64,000 bases of DNA. Source: Oscillospiraceae bacterium (GTDB lineage Bacteria > Bacillota > Clostridia > Oscillospirales > SIG627). Within the stretch, counting starts at the first letter, position 1; every line of letters begins with the position of its first letter. Position numbers and translations under genes: made by a program. Under the pieces are notes generated by a model. That model worked only from the letters and a program-made list of their open reading frames with translations, had not been told where the DNA came from and did no database searches. The stretch spans positions 1-64,000 of the forward strand of contig SVQW01000004.1 in NCBI GenBank assembly GCA_015065085.1, read 5' to 3'. Below, one piece after another: positions 8,219-19,500 of this stretch.

Positions 8219-8758
8219 GTGGATTCCATCACCCAAACAGATTTTCTTATACTCGATTTTATACACAACAACCTGACCTGTCGTTTTTTTGACCTTTTGC
8301 TGACTTTTTTCACACATCTGGGAAACGGCGGGATTATATGGTTCATAGCGGGATTTGCGCTTATCTTGTCAAAAAAATACAGAAAAAGCGGTATTACCAT
8401 GCTATGTGCCATGGCATTCGGTTTTCTGACGGGAAATATGATACTAAAAAATCTTATTGCCCGTCCGCGCCCCTGCTGGATAAATACGGATGTTTTATTG
8501 CTTATAGAAAACCCCTCCGACTACTCCTTTCCGTCGGGGCACACACTTTCATCCGTTATATGTGCCACAGTGCTCACCTTGACCGACCGAAAATTCGGAT
8601 TTGCTGCCATACCCGCAGCACTTCTCATTGCTTTTTCAAGGCTGTATCTGTATGTCCATTTTCCCAGTGACGTGGTATTCTCGGTGGTGTACGGAATATG
8701 CATAGGCATTGTTGCCTGTCGTATTGCAGGTAAATTTTTCGGTTGTAAAAGCAATTGA
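8219..8758 (+). CDS. PAP2-family membrane phosphatase
   Basis: The 179-residue integral membrane protein shows all three signature blocks of the PAP2 superfamily: K-(x6)-RP in KNLIARPRP, PSGH in the middle, and SRLYLYVHFPSD near the end. Members remove phosphate from phosphatidic acid, undecaprenyl pyrophosphate or related lipids at the outer membrane face. It is read from GTG at 8219 behind an acGAGG ribosome site, 21 nt after the exporter gene, and probably closes that operon. The promoter of the next operon overlaps its stop codon. A role in recycling undecaprenyl pyrophosphate (BacA/PgpB-like) would fit the envelope context but is inference. Confidence 0.85.
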   Translation: MDSITQTDFLILDFIHNNLTCRFFDLLLTFFTHLGNGGIIWFIAGFALILSKKYRKSGITMLCAMAFGFLTGNMILKNLIARPRPCWINTDVLLLIENPSDYSFPSGHTLSSVICATVLTLTDRKFGFAAIPAALLIAFSRLYLYVHFPSDVVFSVVYGICIGIVACRIAGKFFGCKSN

Positions 8759-8783
8759 CACAAACGAACAAATGTGGTAAAAT
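8755..8783 (+). promoter_or_regulatory. Sigma-A promoter of the TerB/helicase operon
   Basis: TTGACA (8755-8760) and TAAAAT (8778-8783) with a 17-bp spacer. The -35 box overlaps the last codons of the PAP2 gene, and the TerB gene starts 36 bp after the -10 box behind an AAAGG ribosome site. The four-gene block is thus an independent unit. Confidence 0.7.
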
Positions 8784-8819: not shown

Positions 8820-10424
8820 ATGAAGGACGATTTCTGGGATATTGACAAGCTTCTCCCGCGCAAGCCCCATTATCAAAATTCACCGCCAAGAACTCACGAA
8901 AGCACCGGTTCACCCGATCCGGTACTTATAAGAAACGGAAAAAGCAACGATAAATCGGTTTCGCTGGATGATATTTTAAAAACTGTTCTTCCTCCCGCAA
9001 ACAAGACCGAAATCGATTATTCCTCGAAAAGCTCGGTAATTCTGGGGGCCGTGGTAAGCGACATTGCAAATTCATATTCATACAGCAACGATTTTTCGGG
9101 TAACGCGCACAGAGTACACATGCAATCTCCAAATAAACAGGCGGATTTTGTTCCTTTCTTCTCGTATATGCCTCAGTACTCAGATCTTTCAGCCATGCAG
9201 TATCAAAGATATCTATGGTGGAGAGAATGCGCCAGAAAAAACGAATACCTGCAAACAGATGTGTCGTATATTTTCTTGTACATTTATGAACTCATCTCGC
9301 TGGACGACGTTATCAAGCCCGAAAACGTGCTTAGTGCCATCATTTCGTTGTGGGTTGCTTATTATCAAAAGCACACAGAGCTGAATAAATACCTGTGCGA
9401 CTGGATAACGGATTACGCTATCATTCATAATATACGCATTCCCTTTGAAATGCTGGAAAAAGTAATCCCCTACGCAGAAACAAAGCAGCAATCCATACTT
9501 TTCAACATGTATCTGTTTGACTATGTTTTGAGCGATATCGGGCATCTTACAGACGATAACATTTCGCTTGTGTGCAAAGTACTTTCCAATTACAGCCCTT
9601 ACAAAAGCAAAAGCTATGAAATCGAGGAATACAGAAAAATATTTGACGGATGTATAAAAGCAATATTCCATAAGCTGTTTGAAATAGGTTTTTTCACACC
9701 AGACGGCAATTATCTTCATAAAAGCGAGTTGAAAGTAACCCGTTCATCGTACCTGGGCGCAGTTTGTTCGGCAAACACAAAAAAGAATATGGCAATCACT
9801 TACTATCCTTTCATTTCCAACGAGCTTATACGTACTTCGTTTTCAAATATAATAAAACACACCGAAAACAAAATACGTGCGTCTCTCGGCATGAGAAACA
9901 GGCTTCCGAATATCATTCTTGCCGACGAAATACGCGGTGTTATCGACAGCTTTATGGAGCTTAATTATCCTGTCATTTCAAAAACAAAGGCCGCGATTGA
10001 AAAAAAGACCGCACCGCCGCGTGAAATCAAAAAAATAGAAGTAAACCTGGCCAAAGCCAAACGAATAGAAGACATTTCTTGGCAAACCACCGAAAAGCTG
10101 ACCGACGGATTGATCAGGGAAGATGACGAAACCGCAATCCCCATCATCGAGGCATCTGTACCAACGGAATCCGTAAACAGCGAACAAAACGATTTTCCGT
10201 CCGCTCTTACAGAGTGTGAAAAAGCAATATTGCATCTCATACTGAATAACGCTGCACCGAGTGAAACGGAAAAAGCCGCACGTAATGCAGGGCTTCTTGC
10301 AGATGCGGTCATTGACAGTATAAACGAAAAAGCACTTGAATATATCGGGGACACCGTAATCGACCCATCGGATTACACAGTAATACCAGAATATATTGAC
10401 GAATTATCAGCTTTCAACATATGA
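8820..10424 (+). CDS. TerB-N / TerB-C domain protein
   Basis: The 534-residue protein opens with an acidic aromatic segment (DDFWDID) typical of TerB-N proteins. It then has a helical TerB-N domain (about residues 105-310, with FFSYMPQYSDL and YLWWRECAR) and a linker rich in Lys and Glu. A TerB-C domain follows (about 455-530, including INEKALEYIGD). No catalytic motif or signal peptide is visible; it is probably a cytoplasmic scaffold or sensor. In comparative genomics TerB-N/C proteins recur beside DNA helicases in Ter-linked stress and DNA-processing clusters, and here the next gene follows after 12 nt. Domain calls rest on motif memory, so boundaries are approximate. Confidence 0.8.
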   Translation: MKDDFWDIDKLLPRKPHYQNSPPRTHESTGSPDPVLIRNGKSNDKSVSLDDILKTVLPPANKTEIDYSSKSSVILGAVVSDIANSYSYSNDFSGNAHRVHMQSPNKQADFVPFFSYMPQYSDLSAMQYQRYLWWRECARKNEYLQTDVSYIFLYIYELISLDDVIKPENVLSAIISLWVAYYQKHTELNKYLCDWITDYAIIHNIRIPFEMLEKVIPYAETKQQSILFNMYLFDYVLSDIGHLTDDNISLVCKVLSNYSPYKSKSYEIEEYRKIFDGCIKAIFHKLFEIGFFTPDGNYLHKSELKVTRSSYLGAVCSANTKKNMAITYYPFISNELIRTSFSNIIKHTENKIRASLGMRNRLPNIILADEIRGVIDSFMELNYPVISKTKAAIEKKTAPPREIKKIEVNLAKAKRIEDISWQTTEKLTDGLIREDDETAIPIIEASVPTESVNSEQNDFPSALTECEKAILHLILNNAAPSETEKAARNAGLLADAVIDSINEKALEYIGDTVIDPSDYTVIPEYIDELSAFNI

Positions 10425-10436
10425 AAGGAAACCATA

Positions 10437-11777
10437 ATGTCTGAAAAGAATATACCTATCAAAATCCCAAAAAGAATACTCGGTACTGTTCTGAACTCTG
10501 CCGCCGCAGGTGTCGTTCCGCGTTTCGGACTTGAGTACATGGCAATCGGCAGAAATGACGAAGTAACCGCTCTGTTGGGCGGACTTGAAAACGTTGCGGA
10601 CGGCATGGGCGACTGTCGGTTTATAATAGGAAAATACGGAAGCGGCAAAAGCTTTCTTATAGGACTTATACGCTGTAACGCACTTGAAAAAGGCTTTGTT
10701 ACCGCAGATACCGACCTTTCTCCCGAGCGACGTTTTATCGGAACAAGAGGTCAAGGAATTGCCACTTACCGCGAGCTTATGAAGAATCTTGCCTGCAAGA
10801 CCTCTCCCGACGGCGGAGCTCTTCCCGTAATACTCACAAAATGGCTGTCGGCGCTTCAAGCGGAAACGGTTACAAAAGACGGCATTTCACAGGATGACCC
10901 TGCGTTCACCCTTACAATGGACAAAAAAATAATGGAGGTTGCCGCTTCTCTTGAAGGTCTTGTTAACGGCTTTGATTTTGCAAGCGTGCTTTCCATATAC
11001 TACCGTGCCGTAAAAAGCGGTGACGATGAAAAGAAATCCTGCGCCCTGCGCTGGCTGAGAGGTGAATACTCCAACAAGCTCGAGGTGCGCGGTACGCTGG
11101 GTATAAACTCCCTTATCGACGACTCCAACTGGTATGATTACGTCAAGCTTTTTGCCGTGTTCTTCCGTAAAATAGGATACAAAGGCTTTGTTGTTTTCTT
11201 TGACGAGTGTGTCAATCTTTATAAAATCCCTCACAAAATGTCACGTGAAAACAATTACGAAAAAATCCTTTCCATGTTCAACGATACCCTCCAGGGCAAA
11301 GCGGAAGGGCTCGGGCTGATTCTGGGTGGCACACCTCAGTTTTTGGAAGACGAGCGCCGCGGACTTTTCAGCTACGATGCGCTTAAATCCCGTCTTTCGG
11401 GAAGCCGTGTAGCCAAGGGAAATTATAAAAACTTTATGGGACCGGTTATATACCTTGACCGTCTCAGCGATGATGAGCTTTACGCACTTATTATGCGTAT
11501 GCTCATACTGCACAAGCAGTATTACGCATGGGAACCTGAGATTGCGGACAGTGAGATACTTGAATTCTTACAGCTTTGTTTCAATAAAATGGGTGCTGAC
11601 ACACTGCTCACTCCACGTGAAATAATACGTGATTTTCTGGGTGTCCTCAACATTATGTACCAAAACAGCGGTGTCACCTTCTCCAAAGTCATTTCCGACG
11701 GCAATGTAACTCTGAAAAGCGATGCAGAATCCGGAGACGATGATGATATATTTGATTTGGGCAGTATTGAAATATGA
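10437..11777 (+). CDS. BREX BrxD-like P-loop ATPase (DUF2791 family)
   Basis: The 446-residue AAA+-type ATPase has Walker A GKYGSGKS at residues 65-72 and Walker B VVFFDE with Asp256-Glu257. A GGTPQF sensor-like motif and a long helical C-terminal part follow. This arrangement matches the DUF2791/BrxD family of ATP-binding proteins found in some BREX phage-defence loci next to an Lhr-type helicase, and that is the neighbour here as well. No PglZ, BrxL, BrxC or methyltransferase gene is present, so the locus is not BREX. The stop overlaps the helicase start by four bases, implying coupled translation and a shared complex. The likely role is ATP-dependent loading or regulation on DNA. Confidence 0.8.
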   Translation: MSEKNIPIKIPKRILGTVLNSAAAGVVPRFGLEYMAIGRNDEVTALLGGLENVADGMGDCRFIIGKYGSGKSFLIGLIRCNALEKGFVTADTDLSPERRFIGTRGQGIATYRELMKNLACKTSPDGGALPVILTKWLSALQAETVTKDGISQDDPAFTLTMDKKIMEVAASLEGLVNGFDFASVLSIYYRAVKSGDDEKKSCALRWLRGEYSNKLEVRGTLGINSLIDDSNWYDYVKLFAVFFRKIGYKGFVVFFDECVNLYKIPHKMSRENNYEKILSMFNDTLQGKAEGLGLILGGTPQFLEDERRGLFSYDALKSRLSGSRVAKGNYKNFMGPVIYLDRLSDDELYALIMRMLILHKQYYAWEPEIADSEILEFLQLCFNKMGADTLLTPREIIRDFLGVLNIMYQNSGVTFSKVISDGNVTLKSDAESGDDDDIFDLGSIEI

Positions 11778-14014
11778 ATTATCGTGAAAAAGCCGCACGA
11801 GTCTATAACTCCTTTTCTCCTTTTATTCGTGATTTCATATACCGAAATGAATGGGACACCATACGCGAGGTACAGATAGAAGCTGCAGATGTCATTTTTT
11901 CAACAGAAAACAATCTGCTCATATGCTCATCCACGGCTTCGGGAAAAACAGAAGCGGCATTTTTCCCCATTTTGTCCCATATGTATGACAATCCCCCATC
12001 GTCGGTGGGCGTTTTATACATTGCACCACTGAAGGCACTTATAAATGACCAATTCGAGCGCTTGGAAACGCTGATGGAAGAAAGCGGTATATCGGTATTT
12101 CACTGGCACGGAGATGTGCCCTCGGCACAAAAATCTAAATTTCTCAAAAAGCCGACAGCTGTTTTGCAGATAACTCCGGAATCGCTGGAAAGCATGTTGA
12201 TAAACAGAAAAAACGATATTCCCCGCCTTTTCGGTGACTTGCAATATGTTGTCATTGACGAAATTCACACACTCATGGGCTTTGACAGAGGAAGCCAGGT
12301 ATGCTGTCTTATTGAGCGTCTTTCTGCGCTCATCGGACATTCGCCCCGAAGAATAGGTTTATCCGCTACGGTGGGAGATACGCGTCTTGCTGCCGAATGG
12401 CTAAGTGAAAATACCAACCGCAGATGCTCTGTTGTGAATATCAAATCTTCGGGCATCAAATGGCGGCTCGCCATGCAACATTTTTACTTGCAAAACGAGA
12501 ATTCAGACAAACCGACGTCAATCGACGGCGATGTTGCAGACCCAGGGTATGATTTTGTTTATAAATGCGCAAGACAGAAAAAAAGTCTTGTATTCTCAAA
12601 TTCACGCGAAGAAACCGAAATAATAACTGCCACATTGCGACAGATAGCGGAAAGCAGAAATGAAGATGACATATTCTATATCCATCACGGAAATCTTTCC
12701 GCCGCTCTGCGCGAAACAGCAGAATCGGTTATGAAGGATGATACAAAGCATGCTGTGACATGTGCCACAGTAACGCTTGAATTGGGCGTGGATATAGGAC
12801 GTTTGGAACGTATAATCAATATCGGTGCTCCAAATACGGTATCAAGCTTCCTTCAGCGCATCGGACGTTCGGGACGAAGAGAAACACCGCCCGAAATGAT
12901 TATGGTGTTCCGCGAAGAAAATGCGCTGCCAAACACACCTGTTTATGAGCTTATCCCCTGGAATTTTCTGCAGGGAATCGCCATTATACAGCTTTATATT
13001 GAGGAGCGCTGGCTGGAGCCGCCCTTCAGAAAATCCTTACCCTTCAGCCTTTTATATCATCAGACAATGTCTGTTTTGGCCTCATCGGGAGAACTTACTC
13101 CTGCATCACTGGCACAAAAGGTTCTGTCTCTTGCTCCCTTCAAAGACATTGAGAAAGAAGACTACCGAGATTTACTGGTGCATCTGATAAAAAACGAGCA
13201 CATTCAGCAGACCGAAGAAAAGGGTCTTATTATTGGACTCAAGGGCGAAAAGATAATAAACAGCTTTAAGTTTTATGCAGTGTTCAAAGACAGCGAGGAT
13301 TTTACCGTACGATGCAAATCAGAGGAAATAGGCACCATAACCACACCTCCCCCCGTAGGCGAAAGATTTGCGCTTGCAGGCCGTGTATGGGAAGTGGAAG
13401 AGCTGGAAATCCAACGAAAGCTTATATATGTAAAAGCTGTAAAAGGAAAAATGGCGGTGTCATGGCCGGGTGACAAGGGTGAAATACACACAAAAATACT
13501 AAAACGAATGAAAAAAATACTTGAAGAGGATACCGTTTATCCTTACCTTAAGCCCGAAGCAATAAAACGACTGGAAAAAGCACGCTCTGTGGCTCGCAAT
13601 ACAGGTATCTTGGAAACGGGACTTGTGTGTCTGGGCGGCGTAAATTATTGTCTTTTTCCCTGGCTCGGAACACGATCTGTACGTTCGCTCAAGCGCTTTA
13701 TTCAGTACAAATGCGCCGCTGCGCTGGGTATCACCGCCCTTGAATATGATTCCTGCTATTATATCACCTTCAAAATGGAGCGTTATGACCGGGAAAGCTT
13801 TGTAAACTATCTGAATGACACAATAGCGCGTCAAGGTGTAACACTATCCGAGTTGGTAGGACAGAACGAACTTCCCGTATTTGAAAAATACGACGAATAT
13901 ATACCGCGTGAGCTTCTTCAAAAGTCTTACTGCACCGACAAGCTTTGCAGTGAAGAGCTTATCGCGCGTGTAAAGGAACTTAAAAACGAAATTGAAAAAG
14001 CTAAGGAGAATTAA
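11774..14014 (+). CDS. Lhr-like DEAD/DEAH-box SF2 helicase
   Basis: The 746-residue protein carries SF2 helicase motifs: motif I STASGKTE (53-60), motif Ia APLKALIND, motif II DEIH (162-165), motif III SAT, and motif VI QRIGRSGRR. A long C-terminal region follows that resembles the winged-helix and core part of Lhr-type enzymes. It should be a 3'-5' DNA or RNA:DNA translocase acting in the cytoplasm. It overlaps the ATPase gene by an ATGA junction and is followed after 2 nt by the giant gene, so the four proteins are made together. Lhr-like helicases paired with a BrxD-type ATPase occur in BREX variants, but here the helicase pairs with TerB and SF1-like proteins. Confidence 0.88.
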   Translation: MNYREKAARVYNSFSPFIRDFIYRNEWDTIREVQIEAADVIFSTENNLLICSSTASGKTEAAFFPILSHMYDNPPSSVGVLYIAPLKALINDQFERLETLMEESGISVFHWHGDVPSAQKSKFLKKPTAVLQITPESLESMLINRKNDIPRLFGDLQYVVIDEIHTLMGFDRGSQVCCLIERLSALIGHSPRRIGLSATVGDTRLAAEWLSENTNRRCSVVNIKSSGIKWRLAMQHFYLQNENSDKPTSIDGDVADPGYDFVYKCARQKKSLVFSNSREETEIITATLRQIAESRNEDDIFYIHHGNLSAALRETAESVMKDDTKHAVTCATVTLELGVDIGRLERIINIGAPNTVSSFLQRIGRSGRRETPPEMIMVFREENALPNTPVYELIPWNFLQGIAIIQLYIEERWLEPPFRKSLPFSLLYHQTMSVLASSGELTPASLAQKVLSLAPFKDIEKEDYRDLLVHLIKNEHIQQTEEKGLIIGLKGEKIINSFKFYAVFKDSEDFTVRCKSEEIGTITTPPPVGERFALAGRVWEVEELEIQRKLIYVKAVKGKMAVSWPGDKGEIHTKILKRMKKILEEDTVYPYLKPEAIKRLEKARSVARNTGILETGLVCLGGVNYCLFPWLGTRSVRSLKRFIQYKCAAALGITALEYDSCYYITFKMERYDRESFVNYLNDTIARQGVTLSELVGQNELPVFEKYDEYIPRELLQKSYCTDKLCSEELIARVKELKNEIEKAKEN

Positions 14015-14016
14015 CC

Positions 14017-17000
14017 ATGAGCTCAATGATTAAAATCCTGTCATTCAATATATCACATTACAATTACAGCATGTGTGTAAACAATGTTCCGCTGATAAAA
14101 TCACTGCTTTTTGAGGTATCCCCTCAGGAAAATGCATCCGATTTTTACGGAAAAGACCTTTACGTAACAATAAAAGCCACCCCGGAAATATTCCATTCCT
14201 ACCACCGCAGTATCACCATCAGCGCTGACGGAAAATGTGATATATCGGGAATAGAGCCCGAAATGCGTCCGCGCATTATCCAGGCAGTCACCGAGCCTCA
14301 GAAATGTACTATTGACATCACCGTAAGAGACCGACACGATGTATGCGGAAGCCTTTCGTACAATGTGGATCTTCAGCCCTACTATTGCTGGAGCGGTTTT
14401 TCCTGTATGCCCGAATATCTGTGTTCTCTGGTTACTCCCTCACAGCCACAGGTTCAAAAAATCGTTTCCTCTGCATATGAATTACTTCGCAACCAGGGTG
14501 AGTTGCCAATAAACGACGGCTACGAAAAGAAGAACATAAAAAAGGTTTTTGCAATAAACCGGGCTATATACGACTCAATACGCAGTCTCAAAATAACCTA
14601 CAACATCACAAAAACCGACTATCTTTCAAAATGCGTATCTCTCCAGACCGCCGAAATGCTTATGCACCGCATGATAGGAAGCTCGCTTGACATTTCGCTG
14701 GTTTTCGCCGCGTGCCTGGAAAATCTGGGGCTCAATCCCTTTATAACCGTATTCAGAAATCATGTGCTTATAGGTTGTTTTTTGAGTGATTTGAACTTCA
14801 CCAACCCTGTCACCGAAAACTTTGACGAGCTTATGGCGATGGGACGCGGTCCACGCCGTGTGCTTTTCCTCATGGAACCAACCTCAATGGCAAACGGCAT
14901 GAGCATCGACTTTGAAAATTCCTGTCGCATGGCAAAGGAATATTGCGAAAAAAATGCTGCACATTTTACCGCAATTGTCGATATTAAAGCGGCACGCATT
15001 GCAGGCATAAAACCCATCCCAAACCGCATTGTAGAAAACGGCAAGCTGGTTTTTGACGGTGGTGCATATGAAAACGATGACTTCTTCAGTGATTGGGTAG
15101 ACATCAATGATGAAAATATTGATGCGGCAGAGCGTGAAATAAACAAATTAAAGAGTGAAATTTTCGACTTTTCTGAAAATAATCCCCTCATAAACGCCGA
15201 TTTTAAAAATGTTGTCGGACTTGCATACACTTCAAGCGTGGAAGCCTTCGCTTCAAAGCTTAAAAATCCCACGACACTCACACCCTCTCCTTTCAGTGAG
15301 AATACAGAAAGTGTTTTTCTTCCCGACCAGAGATGTGCCGTGATGGAAAGATGCATTAACGAGCTTAATGAAAAACCGGGTGAAACAGCCACATTCTGTA
15401 CCGAAGCAAAGCTGAAAAAGCGTATACACTCCATTTACAATATTACAAGCTGTGACAGATATTACAGATACTACACATATGTCACATTCTACTACGCAAA
15501 ATGGAAATCCCCTGATTCAGCCAACACCATCTACACTCCAATGTTCCTGGTCCCCTGCGAACTCAGCGGGTCACCTGACGGATGCAAATTGAGACTGCTT
15601 ACCGACAATGCCATTCTCAATCCAATTTTCCTGGAAAAAATCAAGCGGCTTTTCACAGTAAATTTTGTTACATTGTCAAAAATCCCGGCACGGGAGATAC
15701 TTACACGTCGCGAATATATCTTTTCTCTTATTTCGTCTGCCGTCAGCGGAAGACTTGATATCAAGTTCATACCATACGTTTCTCTCAGTGCACATGATCT
15801 TTCTTCCTTTTCGGACTACACACATTTAAATAAAAATTCCGTTTCCTCTCCCCTTTCACGCGCTCTTCTCATGGGAACGGAGACCCCGCCCGAATCCCGT
15901 ACATACGGCGATATAGATGTTGATTCCATTTTTCCGCTTAATATGCCTTGTCCTCTTGAACCCGACCGTTTCCAGAAAAGCGCTGTATATCATGCAACCG
16001 AGGATAAATCTACTTTTATAAGCGGTAATATAAACTCCGGCAAAACAAGAACGGCAGCAAACATCATTTTCAACACACTTTACAAATCCAAAACCGTTCT
16101 TTACGTCGGCGGCACGCCCGGTGCATGCAGTGATTTGGAAAAATACCTGGGTAAACTAAGCCTTAACGATTACACACTTTATCTCCGTCCGTACGCCCCC
16201 GACCTGACAGGTGCGTTCAACACTGAAAAGTTACCGGAAAAGCGTCCCAGCGAGCTTTACATAAAAGCTCAGCGTATGATGCAGAAAAAATCCGAGCTTT
16301 CCAATTACTACAAAGCACTCCACAAAAAGCAGAAAACCGGATTTGATCTGTACCAGAACGTAATGCAGTACGAAAAATACAAAAATTCAAAATACTGTGT
16401 TGCCTTTTCTCCCGCTTTTATAAAGGAGTTGGACGAGGACAAGGTCATCGCTTCCCTCCGCCAGATATCCGAGCTTACCAAGGCTGTAAAGCTCAGCGGA
16501 CAGCCCTACCGCCACCCTCTTGCAAAAATCGGAAGAAAAACTTTTTCTTATGAAATAAAGGCTCAGGCTGTAACTCTTATCAATTCATACAAGGCGGCGC
16601 TCGAAAGCTTTCTGGATTGTCAGGATGAGTTGTGCGAGCTGATGTGCTTTGATTTCGAGTTTTTACGCGAGGATCAATCCAATTCCTTGGAAAAGCTTGC
16701 ATACATATTACAGAACTGCTCCGACGTTCTCACTTCCTCAATTTTTGATACCAAGTGCAAAAACACCCTGAACCGACTGCACGGTGTTATTGATCTGGCA
16801 GAAAAGCGCCTTTCAAGCTCGGAAAAAATATTCGGAATTTTTGAAGAACATGTATTGGATATTGATGCGGCTCAGATGCTTGAGGAATACAAGGCTTCTC
16901 TTTCCACATTCTTTATAAAGCGTAACGGAATACAGAAAAAGCTGTTGACAATGCTCAAAAATCATCTTATCGATGACAAAGTCATCTCTGTTGATGAGCT

Positions 17001-19056
17001 TCCGGACACGCTTTATTCACTGGTGCATTATGCCGAAAACACCGCAAAAATAGCGGCAGAAGCTTCGGATTTCAAGGAGCTGTTCGGTATTGATATGTTC
17101 ACACGTAATATTGAGATGGAACGCGAAGCTCTCGAAAAATTAAAGAAAATATATTCTGTTTGCGAAGAATATGTGCTTCACCTCGACAACATCTGTCGCC
17201 GCGAATGCAATCCTGAGGATGTTATTCCTTCCCAGGCGTCCGTTATAACCGACTTCGTTCAGAATCCTGATATTTACAAGACAAAATTTGCGGAATATAA
17301 AAAGCTTCGCGCCACCTTTACGGAAGCGGAAAACACACTGGTTAAATATCTTTCAGTGGATATATACTCCCTGAAGGACAAAATGGCAATTAAGTGGTAT
17401 GAATACGTATATGCCTGGATAACCGAATTGGAGCAGTCAATTGACGGGCTCAAAAGCTGGTGTGAATATCTTAACGCCCGTGACAATGCTCTTGCCATCG
17501 GACTTGACAGTGCAGTAGCTCTTCTCGAAAACACCGACATGACTCAAGACGAATTCCGTCAGGCATTTCTGAAAGGCTTCTTCAAGGCTTCCTGCGAGTA
17601 TATTCTTGCCAATGAACAGGTTTTTGCTTCCTTCAGCAGCGAAAGCTGTGCCGATGCTTGCAATGGGCTCAGCGAGCTGATTTTACAGCTTGACGAAATG
17701 ATAATCGAAGATCTGGGAATTAAGCTCCGTACCGATTACCGTGATTACCACAATCGCTACATCAGTGATAACGAGGAAAAGACATACCTGGACTCCAAGG
17801 ATATGGGTGAGCTGTTTGCTTCGAATCTTAAGCTTCTGCAAAAGCGTTTTCCCGTAACAGTATCTTACGGAAGTGCCATAAATGCATATCTTGCCGAAGA
17901 TACGATGTTTGATTGTCTGATAATCGACGACGTGCACGCAATTCCATATTACTCACTGCTGGGTCTTATTTCCCGCGCTGAAAAAACAGTGTTCCTTGGT
18001 ATGGATACAACCAAAGAAAACACACTGTTCAGCGCACCGGCGGCGTATTCACTGATAGGACGCGGTGCGGCATACTCTCCCGCTTCGCTGTATTCCCGTC
18101 TTATAAAAGCAGATGTCCCGCTGTGTAAGCTGGAATACAAATACGACACACGCCGCGACCTTGCTTCACTGGTAAGCGAAATTTTCTCGTTCCATAACGA
18201 GCATGTAATACCGTGGGCAACCGAAATGGCCGACATAAGCATTATCCCCGTAAACGGTGTATTTGAGCGGCGCGGCACTTTGGTTAACTACGCCGAGGCA
18301 AACTGCGTAGTGGAAACCCTGAAAAATCTTGTTACTGACGAGTCAATTGCCGTATGTGCATTCACACGTCCTCAGGCGGCGCTTATACGCCAGCTGTGGG
18401 ATCAGAGCGGAAGCATACTTGACAATCTCAAAATTTACGCAATTGAAGACTATCCCTCCGCCTGCTTTGACAGAGTGATTGTTTCAACCACCTTTTCTTC
18501 AGGTAACAACACAGGTATACTGCCGTTTAATCCGGCACAGCTTGCGGGAGACAATTACAGATTGCGCTTCAATTCGCTGATGTCCTCGCTGCGCAATTCG
18601 CTTACAGTGATAACCGCCCTTAACGAAAATTCCCTTGACGAGCTGGAACCATACACCGACAGCCTTTACGCCTTCAAGAGATTTATCAAATTCATTTACG
18701 ACCGCTATACATATTTTGCACCTGCCAAGCCGGGCGAATTTGACAAGTGCAGTATACGCGGCGAAATATGCGATTTCCTTCAGAAGCTTGGCTATGATAC
18801 CGTTCAGAATCTGGGAACTTCGGAGCTTAAAATAGACGTTGCCGTGCGCAGTAAAGAGAACAACGGATACATTCTGGGCGTTCTTTTGGACAATTACTGC
18901 GGACAAACCAACGATGTGTATACATCCGAGGTGCTCATGCCCACGCTTCTGAAAAAGAACGGCTGGAACGTAATACGCATTTTCACAAACGAATGGTATG
19001 AGAATTACAACAAACAGCTTGAAGCTATATCCGAAAAGCTTGCGACATTGAAATAA
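14017..19056 (+). CDS. Giant multidomain SF1-like ATPase (DUF4011-helicase type) with degenerate accessory domains
   Basis: The 1679-residue protein follows the layout of DUF4011-type helicases: an N-terminal beta-rich domain (about 1-120), a transglutaminase-like segment (about 140-260), a split SF1 motor and a C-terminal Vsr/PD-(D/E)xK-like domain (about 1575-1670). Motor motifs seen are Walker A GNINSGKT (670-677) and motif II IIDDVHA (1302-1308). Several hallmark residues differ from the family pattern: the usual GTCLD reads GSSLD (Ser223 for Cys, His249 kept), motif III lacks the GDPKQ glutamine, motif VI lacks the TRAR arginine, and the nuclease GIECD motif reads GVLLD with Asp1607 kept. 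It may be a structural or regulatory ATPase rather than an active nuclease-helicase. The ribosome site is AAGGAG. Predicted coiled segments fill about 850-1250. Confidence 0.72.
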   Translation: MSSMIKILSFNISHYNYSMCVNNVPLIKSLLFEVSPQENASDFYGKDLYVTIKATPEIFHSYHRSITISADGKCDISGIEPEMRPRIIQAVTEPQKCTIDITVRDRHDVCGSLSYNVDLQPYYCWSGFSCMPEYLCSLVTPSQPQVQKIVSSAYELLRNQGELPINDGYEKKNIKKVFAINRAIYDSIRSLKITYNITKTDYLSKCVSLQTAEMLMHRMIGSSLDISLVFAACLENLGLNPFITVFRNHVLIGCFLSDLNFTNPVTENFDELMAMGRGPRRVLFLMEPTSMANGMSIDFENSCRMAKEYCEKNAAHFTAIVDIKAARIAGIKPIPNRIVENGKLVFDGGAYENDDFFSDWVDINDENIDAAEREINKLKSEIFDFSENNPLINADFKNVVGLAYTSSVEAFASKLKNPTTLTPSPFSENTESVFLPDQRCAVMERCINELNEKPGETATFCTEAKLKKRIHSIYNITSCDRYYRYYTYVTFYYAKWKSPDSANTIYTPMFLVPCELSGSPDGCKLRLLTDNAILNPIFLEKIKRLFTVNFVTLSKIPAREILTRREYIFSLISSAVSGRLDIKFIPYVSLSAHDLSSFSDYTHLNKNSVSSPLSRALLMGTETPPESRTYGDIDVDSIFPLNMPCPLEPDRFQKSAVYHATEDKSTFISGNINSGKTRTAANIIFNTLYKSKTVLYVGGTPGACSDLEKYLGKLSLNDYTLYLRPYAPDLTGAFNTEKLPEKRPSELYIKAQRMMQKKSELSNYYKALHKKQKTGFDLYQNVMQYEKYKNSKYCVAFSPAFIKELDEDKVIASLRQISELTKAVKLSGQPYRHPLAKIGRKTFSYEIKAQAVTLINSYKAALESFLDCQDELCELMCFDFEFLREDQSNSLEKLAYILQNCSDVLTSSIFDTKCKNTLNRLHGVIDLAEKRLSSSEKIFGIFEEHVLDIDAAQMLEEYKASLSTFFIKRNGIQKKLLTMLKNHLIDDKVISVDELPDTLYSLVHYAENTAKIAAEASDFKELFGIDMFTRNIEMEREALEKLKKIYSVCEEYVLHLDNICRRECNPEDVIPSQASVITDFVQNPDIYKTKFAEYKKLRATFTEAENTLVKYLSVDIYSLKDKMAIKWYEYVYAWITELEQSIDGLKSWCEYLNARDNALAIGLDSAVALLENTDMTQDEFRQAFLKGFFKASCEYILANEQVFASFSSESCADACNGLSELILQLDEMIIEDLGIKLRTDYRDYHNRYISDNEEKTYLDSKDMGELFASNLKLLQKRFPVTVSYGSAINAYLAEDTMFDCLIIDDVHAIPYYSLLGLISRAEKTVFLGMDTTKENTLFSAPAAYSLIGRGAAYSPASLYSRLIKADVPLCKLEYKYDTRRDLASLVSEIFSFHNEHVIPWATEMADISIIPVNGVFERRGTLVNYAEANCVVETLKNLVTDESIAVCAFTRPQAALIRQLWDQSGSILDNLKIYAIEDYPSACFDRVIVSTTFSSGNNTGILPFNPAQLAGDNYRLRFNSLMSSLRNSLTVITALNENSLDELEPYTDSLYAFKRFIKFIYDRYTYFAPAKPGEFDKCSIRGEICDFLQKLGYDTVQNLGTSELKIDVAVRSKENNGYILGVLLDNYCGQTNDVYTSEVLMPTLLKKNGWNVIRIFTNEWYENYNKQLEAISEKLATLK

Positions 19057-19078: not shown

Positions 19079-19117
19079 CCCTCCCGTAATACACTTGTAT
19101 CGGGAGGGTGATTTTTT
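19079..19117 (+). terminator. Terminator hairpin that also holds the next gene's ribosome site
   Basis: Stem CCCTCCCG (19079-19086) / CGGGAGGG (19101-19108), with an inner 4-bp stem ATAC/GTAT and a T7 run at 19112-19118, is a canonical terminator for the helicase operon. The 3' arm GGGAGG is at the same time the only Shine-Dalgarno for the TTG start at 19117, so folding would hide it. This could make expression of the small membrane protein depend on read-through and unfolding. Confidence 0.75.
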
Positions 19118-19500
19118 TGAACAAACAAACAGCCGGAAACACACCGACAGCATTAAACTTTATAGTCAACTGCCTTACCGCCTCGCTTGCAGCATCCGTA
19201 ATAATGACGATACTTCTTGGTATAAGTGCGGTAATTCTCAACACATTTCAAAACCCTGAAAGTCTATACGGAATGTTTTCAATTGTCGTATACATCATAA
19301 CTTCCGTGATTTGCGGTATTATAGCAAAGCGAAAAAACAGTCATTCGGCACTTCTGTGCGGACTTATAAGCACGATATTTCTGGTACTTATTCTGCTGGC
19401 AGTATCAAGTATAATTCCGGGTTTTGAAGTATCTGCACCTGTATGGCAGCCTGTAATACTCCTGATCGGTGCAATACTCGGAGCATTTATAACAAAATAA
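19117..19500 (+). CDS. Small TIGR04086-type membrane protein
   Basis: About 127 residues with four predicted membrane-spanning stretches, short loops and a charged KRKNS turn after the second helix. Size, start MNKQ-like segment and helix pattern match the uncharacterised TIGR04086 membrane proteins that are widespread in Clostridia. The TTG at 19117 is preferred over the GTG at 19108 because GGGAGG lies 9 nt before it, while the GTG sits inside the ribosome site. The gene follows the helicase operon through the shared hairpin and ends about 110 nt before pyk. Function unknown. Confidence 0.65.
   Translation: MNKQTAGNTPTALNFIVNCLTASLAASVIMTILLGISAVILNTFQNPESLYGMFSIVVYIITSVICGIIAKRKNSHSALLCGLISTIFLVLILLAVSSIIPGFEVSAPVWQPVILLIGAILGAFITK

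What the first reader, a model, noticed from the sequence alone, without database searches (positions are those of the whole stretch)
14017..19056. Giant SF1-like protein has lost hallmark residues in three domains at once
Relative to the DUF4011-helicase pattern, the transglutaminase-like GTCLD reads GSSLD (Ser223), motif III lacks GDPKQ (it reads GMDTTKE), motif VI lacks the first Arg of TRAR, and the nuclease GIECD reads GVLLD, while Walker A (670-677) and DD (1304-1305) stay intact. That would make it an ATP-binding scaffold rather than a helicase-nuclease. The family pattern is recalled, so the alignment needs checking.
Basis: partly seen in the sequence, partly recalled or inferred. Interest (0 to 1): 0.62.

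Follow-up and report, generated by a model that had tools for sequence, protein, structure and literature searches.

The report
Dead giant helicase beside Shango operon
A very large bacterial protein descended from anti-phage helicase-nucleases has lost nearly all the residues needed for helicase and transglutaminase chemistry, yet it is kept intact by selection across a whole family of gut and rumen Clostridia, often as the fourth gene of the Shango defence operon, so it is probably a repurposed structural or sensing subunit.

Summary
The 1679-aa protein (14017-19056) is a full-length homologue of the DUF4011/ProA anti-phage helicases (profile-profile E 2e-175). Joint and independent alignments both show the losses: transglutaminase Cys to Ser223, Walker B Glu to Asp1305, and motifs III, IV, V and VI gone, while Walker A is kept. 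One item is wrong: GVLLD is not a loss, because relatives with an intact helicase core also read GILLD or GIMCD. The nuclease-like domain does lose another conserved Asp (RDR motif).

The losses are shared. All 12 homologues in the same bacterial family lack every one of these motifs; about 30 homologues outside it keep the helicase motifs. Seven of the 12 have lost Walker A too, so "ATP-binding scaffold" fits only a sub-clade. The ORF is under purifying selection.

Context: it is the fourth gene of a Shango operon (sngA-sngB-sngC-giant). Shango is otherwise three genes, and three related genomes keep the giant without Shango. A second family has equally degenerate giants beside mreB.

Best reading: a pseudo-helicase, kept as a scaffold or nucleic-acid sensor in the manner of RecC/AddB. 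The dead-enzyme part is well supported; the function is inferred.

The parts
8755..8783 (+). Candidate promoter TTGACA-17-TAAAAT (11 of 12, with TG before the second hexamer) upstream of sngA
   Evidence: Consensus scan; not evidence of function by itself
8820..10424 (+). sngA: TerB_N/TerB_C protein, 534 aa
   Evidence: Pfam TerB_N 1.8e-21 and TerB_C 2e-16; PADLOC SngA 1.7e-54
10437..11777 (+). sngB: BrxD-like ATPase, 446 aa
   Evidence: Pfam BrxC_BrxD 7e-150; PADLOC SngB 5e-166
11774..14014 (+). sngC: SF2 helicase, 746 aa, catalytic motifs intact (SGKT, DEIH, QRIGRSGRR)
   Evidence: PADLOC SngC 1.4e-247; alignment A1
14017..19056 (+). Giant pseudo-helicase, 1679 aa, starts 2 bp after sngC with an AAGGAG ribosome-binding site
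   Evidence: NCBIfam ProA 546 bits, below its cutoff of 1500
14017..14391 (+). Residues 1-125: beta-sandwich (FN3/Ig-like)
   Evidence: AlphaFold model, pLDDT 83-95; Foldseek FN3 and transglutaminase-2 hits, weak E about 4e-3
14392..15051 (+). Residues 126-345: transglutaminase-like domain, catalytic Cys replaced by Ser223 (14683-14685), His249 kept; best-preserved domain (84% of outgroup-invariant columns kept)
15052..15936 (+). Residues 346-640: region equivalent to DUF4011, no longer recognised by Pfam; largely missing in L072 and L074
15937..16296 (+). Residues 641-760: first RecA-like segment, Walker A GNINSGKT intact at 16024-16047
16297..17826 (+). Residues 761-1270: long all-helical insert
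   Evidence: AlphaFold model
17827..18726 (+). Residues 1271-1570: rest of the two RecA-like domains; Walker B Glu to Asp1305 (17926-17931), motif III lost (from 17998), motifs IV, V and VI lost
   Evidence: fold matches Upf1, Ighmbp2 and Dna2
18727..19053 (+). Residues 1571-1679: MTES_1575 REase-like domain; Asp1607 and Asp1625 kept, RDR Asp lost; the DUF3320 tail of active relatives is absent
   Evidence: Pfam MTES_1575 1.2e-14
19108..19500 (+). TIGR04086-family small membrane protein, 51 bp downstream; similar small genes follow the giant in most family members

Best explanation
It is a pseudo-helicase: a full-length descendant of the transglutaminase-DUF4011-SF1 helicase-REase (ProA-type) giants whose helicase and transglutaminase active sites decayed before or during diversification of this bacterial family, while the fold and gene were retained. 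SHOWN: homology, residue loss, clade-wide sharing, purifying selection, tight operon with sngABC in half the genera, and persistence without Shango in some genomes. INFERRED: it now works without catalysis, as a large scaffold or nucleic-acid-sensing subunit. The dead SF1 core would bind single-stranded DNA or RNA, as the inactivated SF1 domains of RecC and AddB do for Chi, and the beta-sandwich/transglutaminase-like N-terminus would make protein contacts. Where co-encoded, it would feed substrate or a signal to the catalytically intact SngC/SngB motor pair.
For: Full-length profile match to ProA-type proteins, 1629 columns, E 2e-175. Family-wide loss of motifs: 0 of 12 against 27-30 of about 30, per residue. 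Retained fold: AlphaFold models with mean pLDDT 83, matching Upf1/Dna2-type SF1 and, weakly, transglutaminases. Purifying selection: congeners 60% identical over 1672 codons with pS 0.81 (saturated) and pN 0.25, with 12 of 12 uninterrupted ORFs. Present in 10 of 11 high-quality genomes of the family and one clade in the tree; same-genus pairs group together, as in rpoB. Operon junctions with sngC of -68 to +27 bp in all 6 adjacent cases. SngC motifs intact. Inactivated-SF1 precedent: AddB/RecC (PMC4824097; PMC1185551).
Against: Nucleic-acid binding and complex formation are not tested. The giant is retained where Shango is absent (G398, G405, G410), and in g224 and G409 Shango lies elsewhere, so a Shango-dedicated role is not general. 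Fast divergence (20-25% identity between genera) could mean weak constraint. Residual ATPase activity in the P-loop-intact sub-clade cannot be excluded. RecC/AddB are an analogy, not homologues established here.
Confidence: 0.5

Rival explanations
1. The giant is a Shango-independent core protein of this lineage (envelope-, cell-shape- or nucleic-acid-related) and its adjacency to sngABC is secondary.
For: Kept without Shango in G398, G405 and G410; conserved downstream neighbours (TIGR04086 membrane protein, polysaccharide deacetylase) whether or not sngABC is upstream; equally degenerate giants in family f102 sit directly upstream of MreB in every case checked; Shango in 78 other Clostridial loci has no giant.
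Against: Four of eight genera keep tight sngC-giant junctions in different upstream contexts, which suggests a functional link; neighbour genes differ between families f1 and f102.
Confidence: 0.3
2. An active but unorthodox ATPase: the intact P-loop with Asp-Asp in Walker B still hydrolyses ATP and acts as a nucleotide switch.
For: GxxxxGK[ST] and Asp1304 kept in the window, L066, L068, L069 and L070.
Against: Lost in 7 of 12 family members; Walker B Glu, motif III Gln and the motif VI arginine finger are gone in the window.
Confidence: 0.12
3. A gene in slow decay: a defence giant that has lost function and is on the way to being a pseudogene.
For: Accelerated branches; some members lost whole domains (DUF4011 region in L072/L074, half the nuclease in L073); absent from G397.
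Against: 12 of 12 uninterrupted ORFs of 1392-1713 codons, purifying selection with saturated synonymous sites, presence across 8 of 8 genera, retained folds.
Confidence: 0.06

Closest known systems
ProA anti-phage protein (NCBIfam NF058533) / PDC-S37 (PADLOC)
   Same: Full-length homology and the same domain order: beta-sandwich, transglutaminase-like, DUF4011, SF1 core with a long insert, REase
   Different: 546 bits against a cutoff of 1500; lacks the SF1 and transglutaminase active-site residues and the DUF3320 tail; outgroup members L092 and L081 score 2044-2079
Hhe (DUF4011 anti-phage helicase, NF042953)
   Same: Shares the SF1 and REase regions
   Different: 72 bits against a cutoff of 2000; no active-site residues
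Shango (sngABC)
   Same: The three upstream genes are SngA, SngB and SngC by PADLOC models; described as an anti-phage system in P. aeruginosa (PMC10250203)
   Different: Shango is defined as three genes; the fourth, giant gene is found here only in family f1, plus one unrelated intact giant beside sngABC in L092. PA14 also has a large multi-domain helicase next to Shango (PMC10250203), whose motifs were not examined.
RecC / AddB inactivated SF1 domains
   Same: SF1 fold retained with helicase motifs lost, in a nuclease-helicase lineage; used to scan DNA (PMC4824097; inactivated nuclease-like domain of RecC, PMC1185551)
   Different: No homology claimed. AddB itself is also encoded in this family (21 of 22 genomes, below the model's cutoff), so the giant is not its replacement

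Membership tests
ProA anti-phage helicase (NF058533) | Score above the curated equivalog cutoff of 1500 bits | tested here: not met
   546 bits; congener L066 530 bits; outgroup L092 2044 bits
ProA / DUF4011 giant superfamily | Homology over the full domain order | tested here: met
   hhalign 1629 columns, probability 100, E 2e-175; SF1-like fold in the model
Active SF1 helicase | Walker A, Walker B DE, motifs III, IV, V and VI | tested here: not met
   Only Walker A met; the rest absent in the window and in 12 of 12 family members
Active transglutaminase-like enzyme | Cys-His(-Asp) catalytic residues | tested here: not met
   Cys replaced by Ser223; His249 kept in genus g1 only; third residue not assigned
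Active MTES_1575 / PD-(D/E)XK nuclease | Conserved acidic residues of the nuclease core | tested here: inconclusive
   Domain passes Pfam cutoff (54.6 against 38.2 bits); Asp1607 and Asp1625 kept; Glu also absent in outgroup; RDR Asp lost
Shango (upstream genes) | sngA, sngB, sngC in one operon | tested here: met
   PADLOC models for all three; gaps of 12 and -4 bp; SngC motifs intact
Shango (upstream genes) | Anti-phage activity | not testable with these tools
   No experiment here; activity is known for other members (PMC10250203)

The most novel reading that the evidence does not exclude
A giant anti-phage helicase-nuclease was converted, in the ancestor of one or more Clostridial families, into a catalytically dead but vertically inherited structural protein: a fourth subunit of Shango in some genera, and a core protein beside mreB or membrane-protein genes in others. 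A defence enzyme would thus have been domesticated into a non-catalytic giant scaffold.
Probability: 0.35. Interest if true: 0.7.

Novelty: new variant of a known kind. Interest (0 to 1): 0.5.

Why it matters
Annotation by family resemblance would call this an anti-phage helicase-nuclease, although nearly all its helicase chemistry is gone across a whole bacterial family. It gives a natural test of what the non-catalytic parts of DUF4011/ProA giants do, adds a candidate fourth component to Shango, whose mechanism I did not find described in the papers searched, and suggests that defence giants can be domesticated into housekeeping scaffolds.

Tried and rejected
GVLLD as a nuclease loss: rejected, because helicase-intact relatives read GILLD or GIMCD. 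Misalignment as the cause: rejected by independent profile alignment and by pattern counts. Window-specific mutation: rejected, shared by 12 of 12 family members. The giant as a replacement for AddB: rejected, AddB matches in 21 of 22 genomes including all 11 high-quality ones. The four-gene context as general for Shango: rejected; 80 Clostridial Shango loci showed a giant only in the two f1 genomes, and the three plasmid Shango loci opened had none. Correlation of Walker A retention with Shango adjacency: none seen. Mantel test of giant against rpoB distances was not significant (p 0.33) because between-genus distances are saturated; only same-genus pairs are informative; a first run had used a wrong ORF for G395 and was replaced. 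Literature on ProA was not found in the library. Origin: F1 and F102 each form one group on the tree, but long branches leave open one or several inactivations.

Full report
WHAT IS THERE. The window protein at 14017-19056 (1679 aa) begins 2 bp after the stop of a DEAD-box helicase gene, with an AAGGAG ribosome-binding site inside that gene's end. The three genes upstream match PADLOC models SngA, SngB and SngC at E 1.7e-54, 5e-166 and 1.4e-247, so the locus is a Shango operon with a fourth gene. Shango is described as a three-gene anti-phage system with TerB, ATPase and helicase components (PMC10250203). SngC keeps its helicase motifs across the family. The giant matches NCBIfam anti-phage ProA at 546 bits (cutoff 1500) and passes a Pfam cutoff only at the C-terminal MTES_1575 domain, whereas outgroup homologues score over 2000 bits for ProA and show DUF4011, AAA_11, AAA_12 and DUF3320.

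RESIDUE CHECK. I aligned the protein with 11 homologues from its own bacterial family (f1) and about 30 from other families of the class. Against 29 outgroup rows: transglutaminase Cys to Ser223; Walker A GxxxxGK intact; Walker B Asp1304 kept, Glu to Asp1305; motif III Asp and Gln lost; motif IV His and Arg lost; motif V Gln, Gly, Glu and Arg lost (Asp1485 kept); motif VI first Arg lost. A named comparator, Bacteroides finegoldii WP_237924679.1, has intact helicase and Cys motifs and reads GIICDG there. The nuclease-like domain does lose the RDR Asp. Aligning each group alone and then profile to profile gives the same correspondences, with a gap opening inside motif III.

SHARED, NOT SPORADIC. 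By simple pattern count, none of 12 family members has Walker B DEAS, motif III, IV, V or VI or the G-x-Cys motif; Walker A survives in 5 of 12. Six giants of another family of the order (f102) have lost all seven patterns. On the tree F1 and F102 each fall on one side of a branch with support 99, but long branches make the deeper placement unsure. A separate group, L096-L099, has lost only the transglutaminase residues and keeps the helicase motifs, so the two inactivations can be uncoupled.

NOT A PSEUDOGENE. All 12 family members have uninterrupted ORFs of 1392-1713 codons. Between the window and its congener, 1672 codons align with 60% amino-acid identity, pN 0.25 and pS 0.81, so synonymous sites are saturated and dN/dS is well below 1. 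It evolves faster than rpoB (93% identity for the same pair) and than SngB/SngC (81%, 79%), and more slowly than SngA (47%). The transglutaminase-like domain is best kept: 84% of outgroup-invariant columns survive in the window, against 31-35% in the helicase core. AlphaFold models (mean pLDDT 83) show a beta-sandwich plus a transglutaminase-like N-terminus, and a RecA-type pair with a long helical insert; Foldseek matches Upf1, Ighmbp2 and Dna2 at E about 1e-8 to 1e-7 for the C-terminal half, and transglutaminase 2 weakly (E 4e-3) for the N-terminal half.

DISTRIBUTION AND CONTEXT. The giant is in 10 of 11 high-quality f1 genomes and all 8 genera. It directly follows sngC in 6 of 12 members from four genera, with junctions of -68 to +27 bp. 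In genus g224 and in G409 Shango is at another place, and G398, G405 and G410 lack it but keep the giant. G398 and G399 (same genus) share the upstream PfkB-like gene and the downstream genes; sngABC lies between in G399 and is missing in G398, where 18 bp separate kinase and giant. In 80 named Clostridial Shango loci, only the two f1 ones have a giant. One intact giant lies beside sngABC in G520 (L092), but its closest relative (L091) has no adjacent Shango in the stretch examined and it is deep within the intact clade, so that association is independent. In f102 the degenerate giants are followed by MreB.

MECHANISM. With most helicase motifs missing, ATP-driven unwinding is very unlikely (inference from SF1 biochemistry). 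The best precedent is RecC and AddB, whose SF1-like domains lack most or all helicase motifs and serve as DNA scanners (PMC4824097); RecC also has an inactivated nuclease-like domain (PMC1185551). I propose the giant is such a scaffold or sensor, cooperating with SngB/SngC where linked. This is inference; the Shango-independent alternative is nearly as good given the three genomes that keep the giant alone and the f102 cases.

Noticed in passing
L275-L280 (family f102): Six equally degenerate giants, without Shango, each followed on the same strand by an MreB/Mbl gene; a seventh (L281) is split into two ORFs and also followed by mreB.
   Followed up: partly
L096-L099 (family f70): Giants that lost transglutaminase Cys and His but keep every SF1 helicase motif, so the two inactivations are separable.
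   Followed up: partly
L068 and L069 (same genus): Natural presence/absence of sngABC between a PfkB-like kinase and the giant, with the giant kept in both.
   Followed up: partly
L132:12285-18985, L135, L141: Shango operons followed by large genes of about 1078 aa (L132, L135; a 235-aa fragment at the contig end in L141) and about 1180 aa (L132, L135) of unidentified kind; possible other fourth components.
   Followed up: no
L129-L208: Shango is widespread in Clostridia (over 570 loci encoding relatives of SngC), and some loci share flanking genes, e.g. L166, L168, L170, L171.
   Followed up: no
L291:11873-16436: On Roseobacter plasmid pTB1, Shango lies beside a SAVED-domain, ThiF and nucleotidyltransferase gene cluster that looks CBASS-like.
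   Followed up: no
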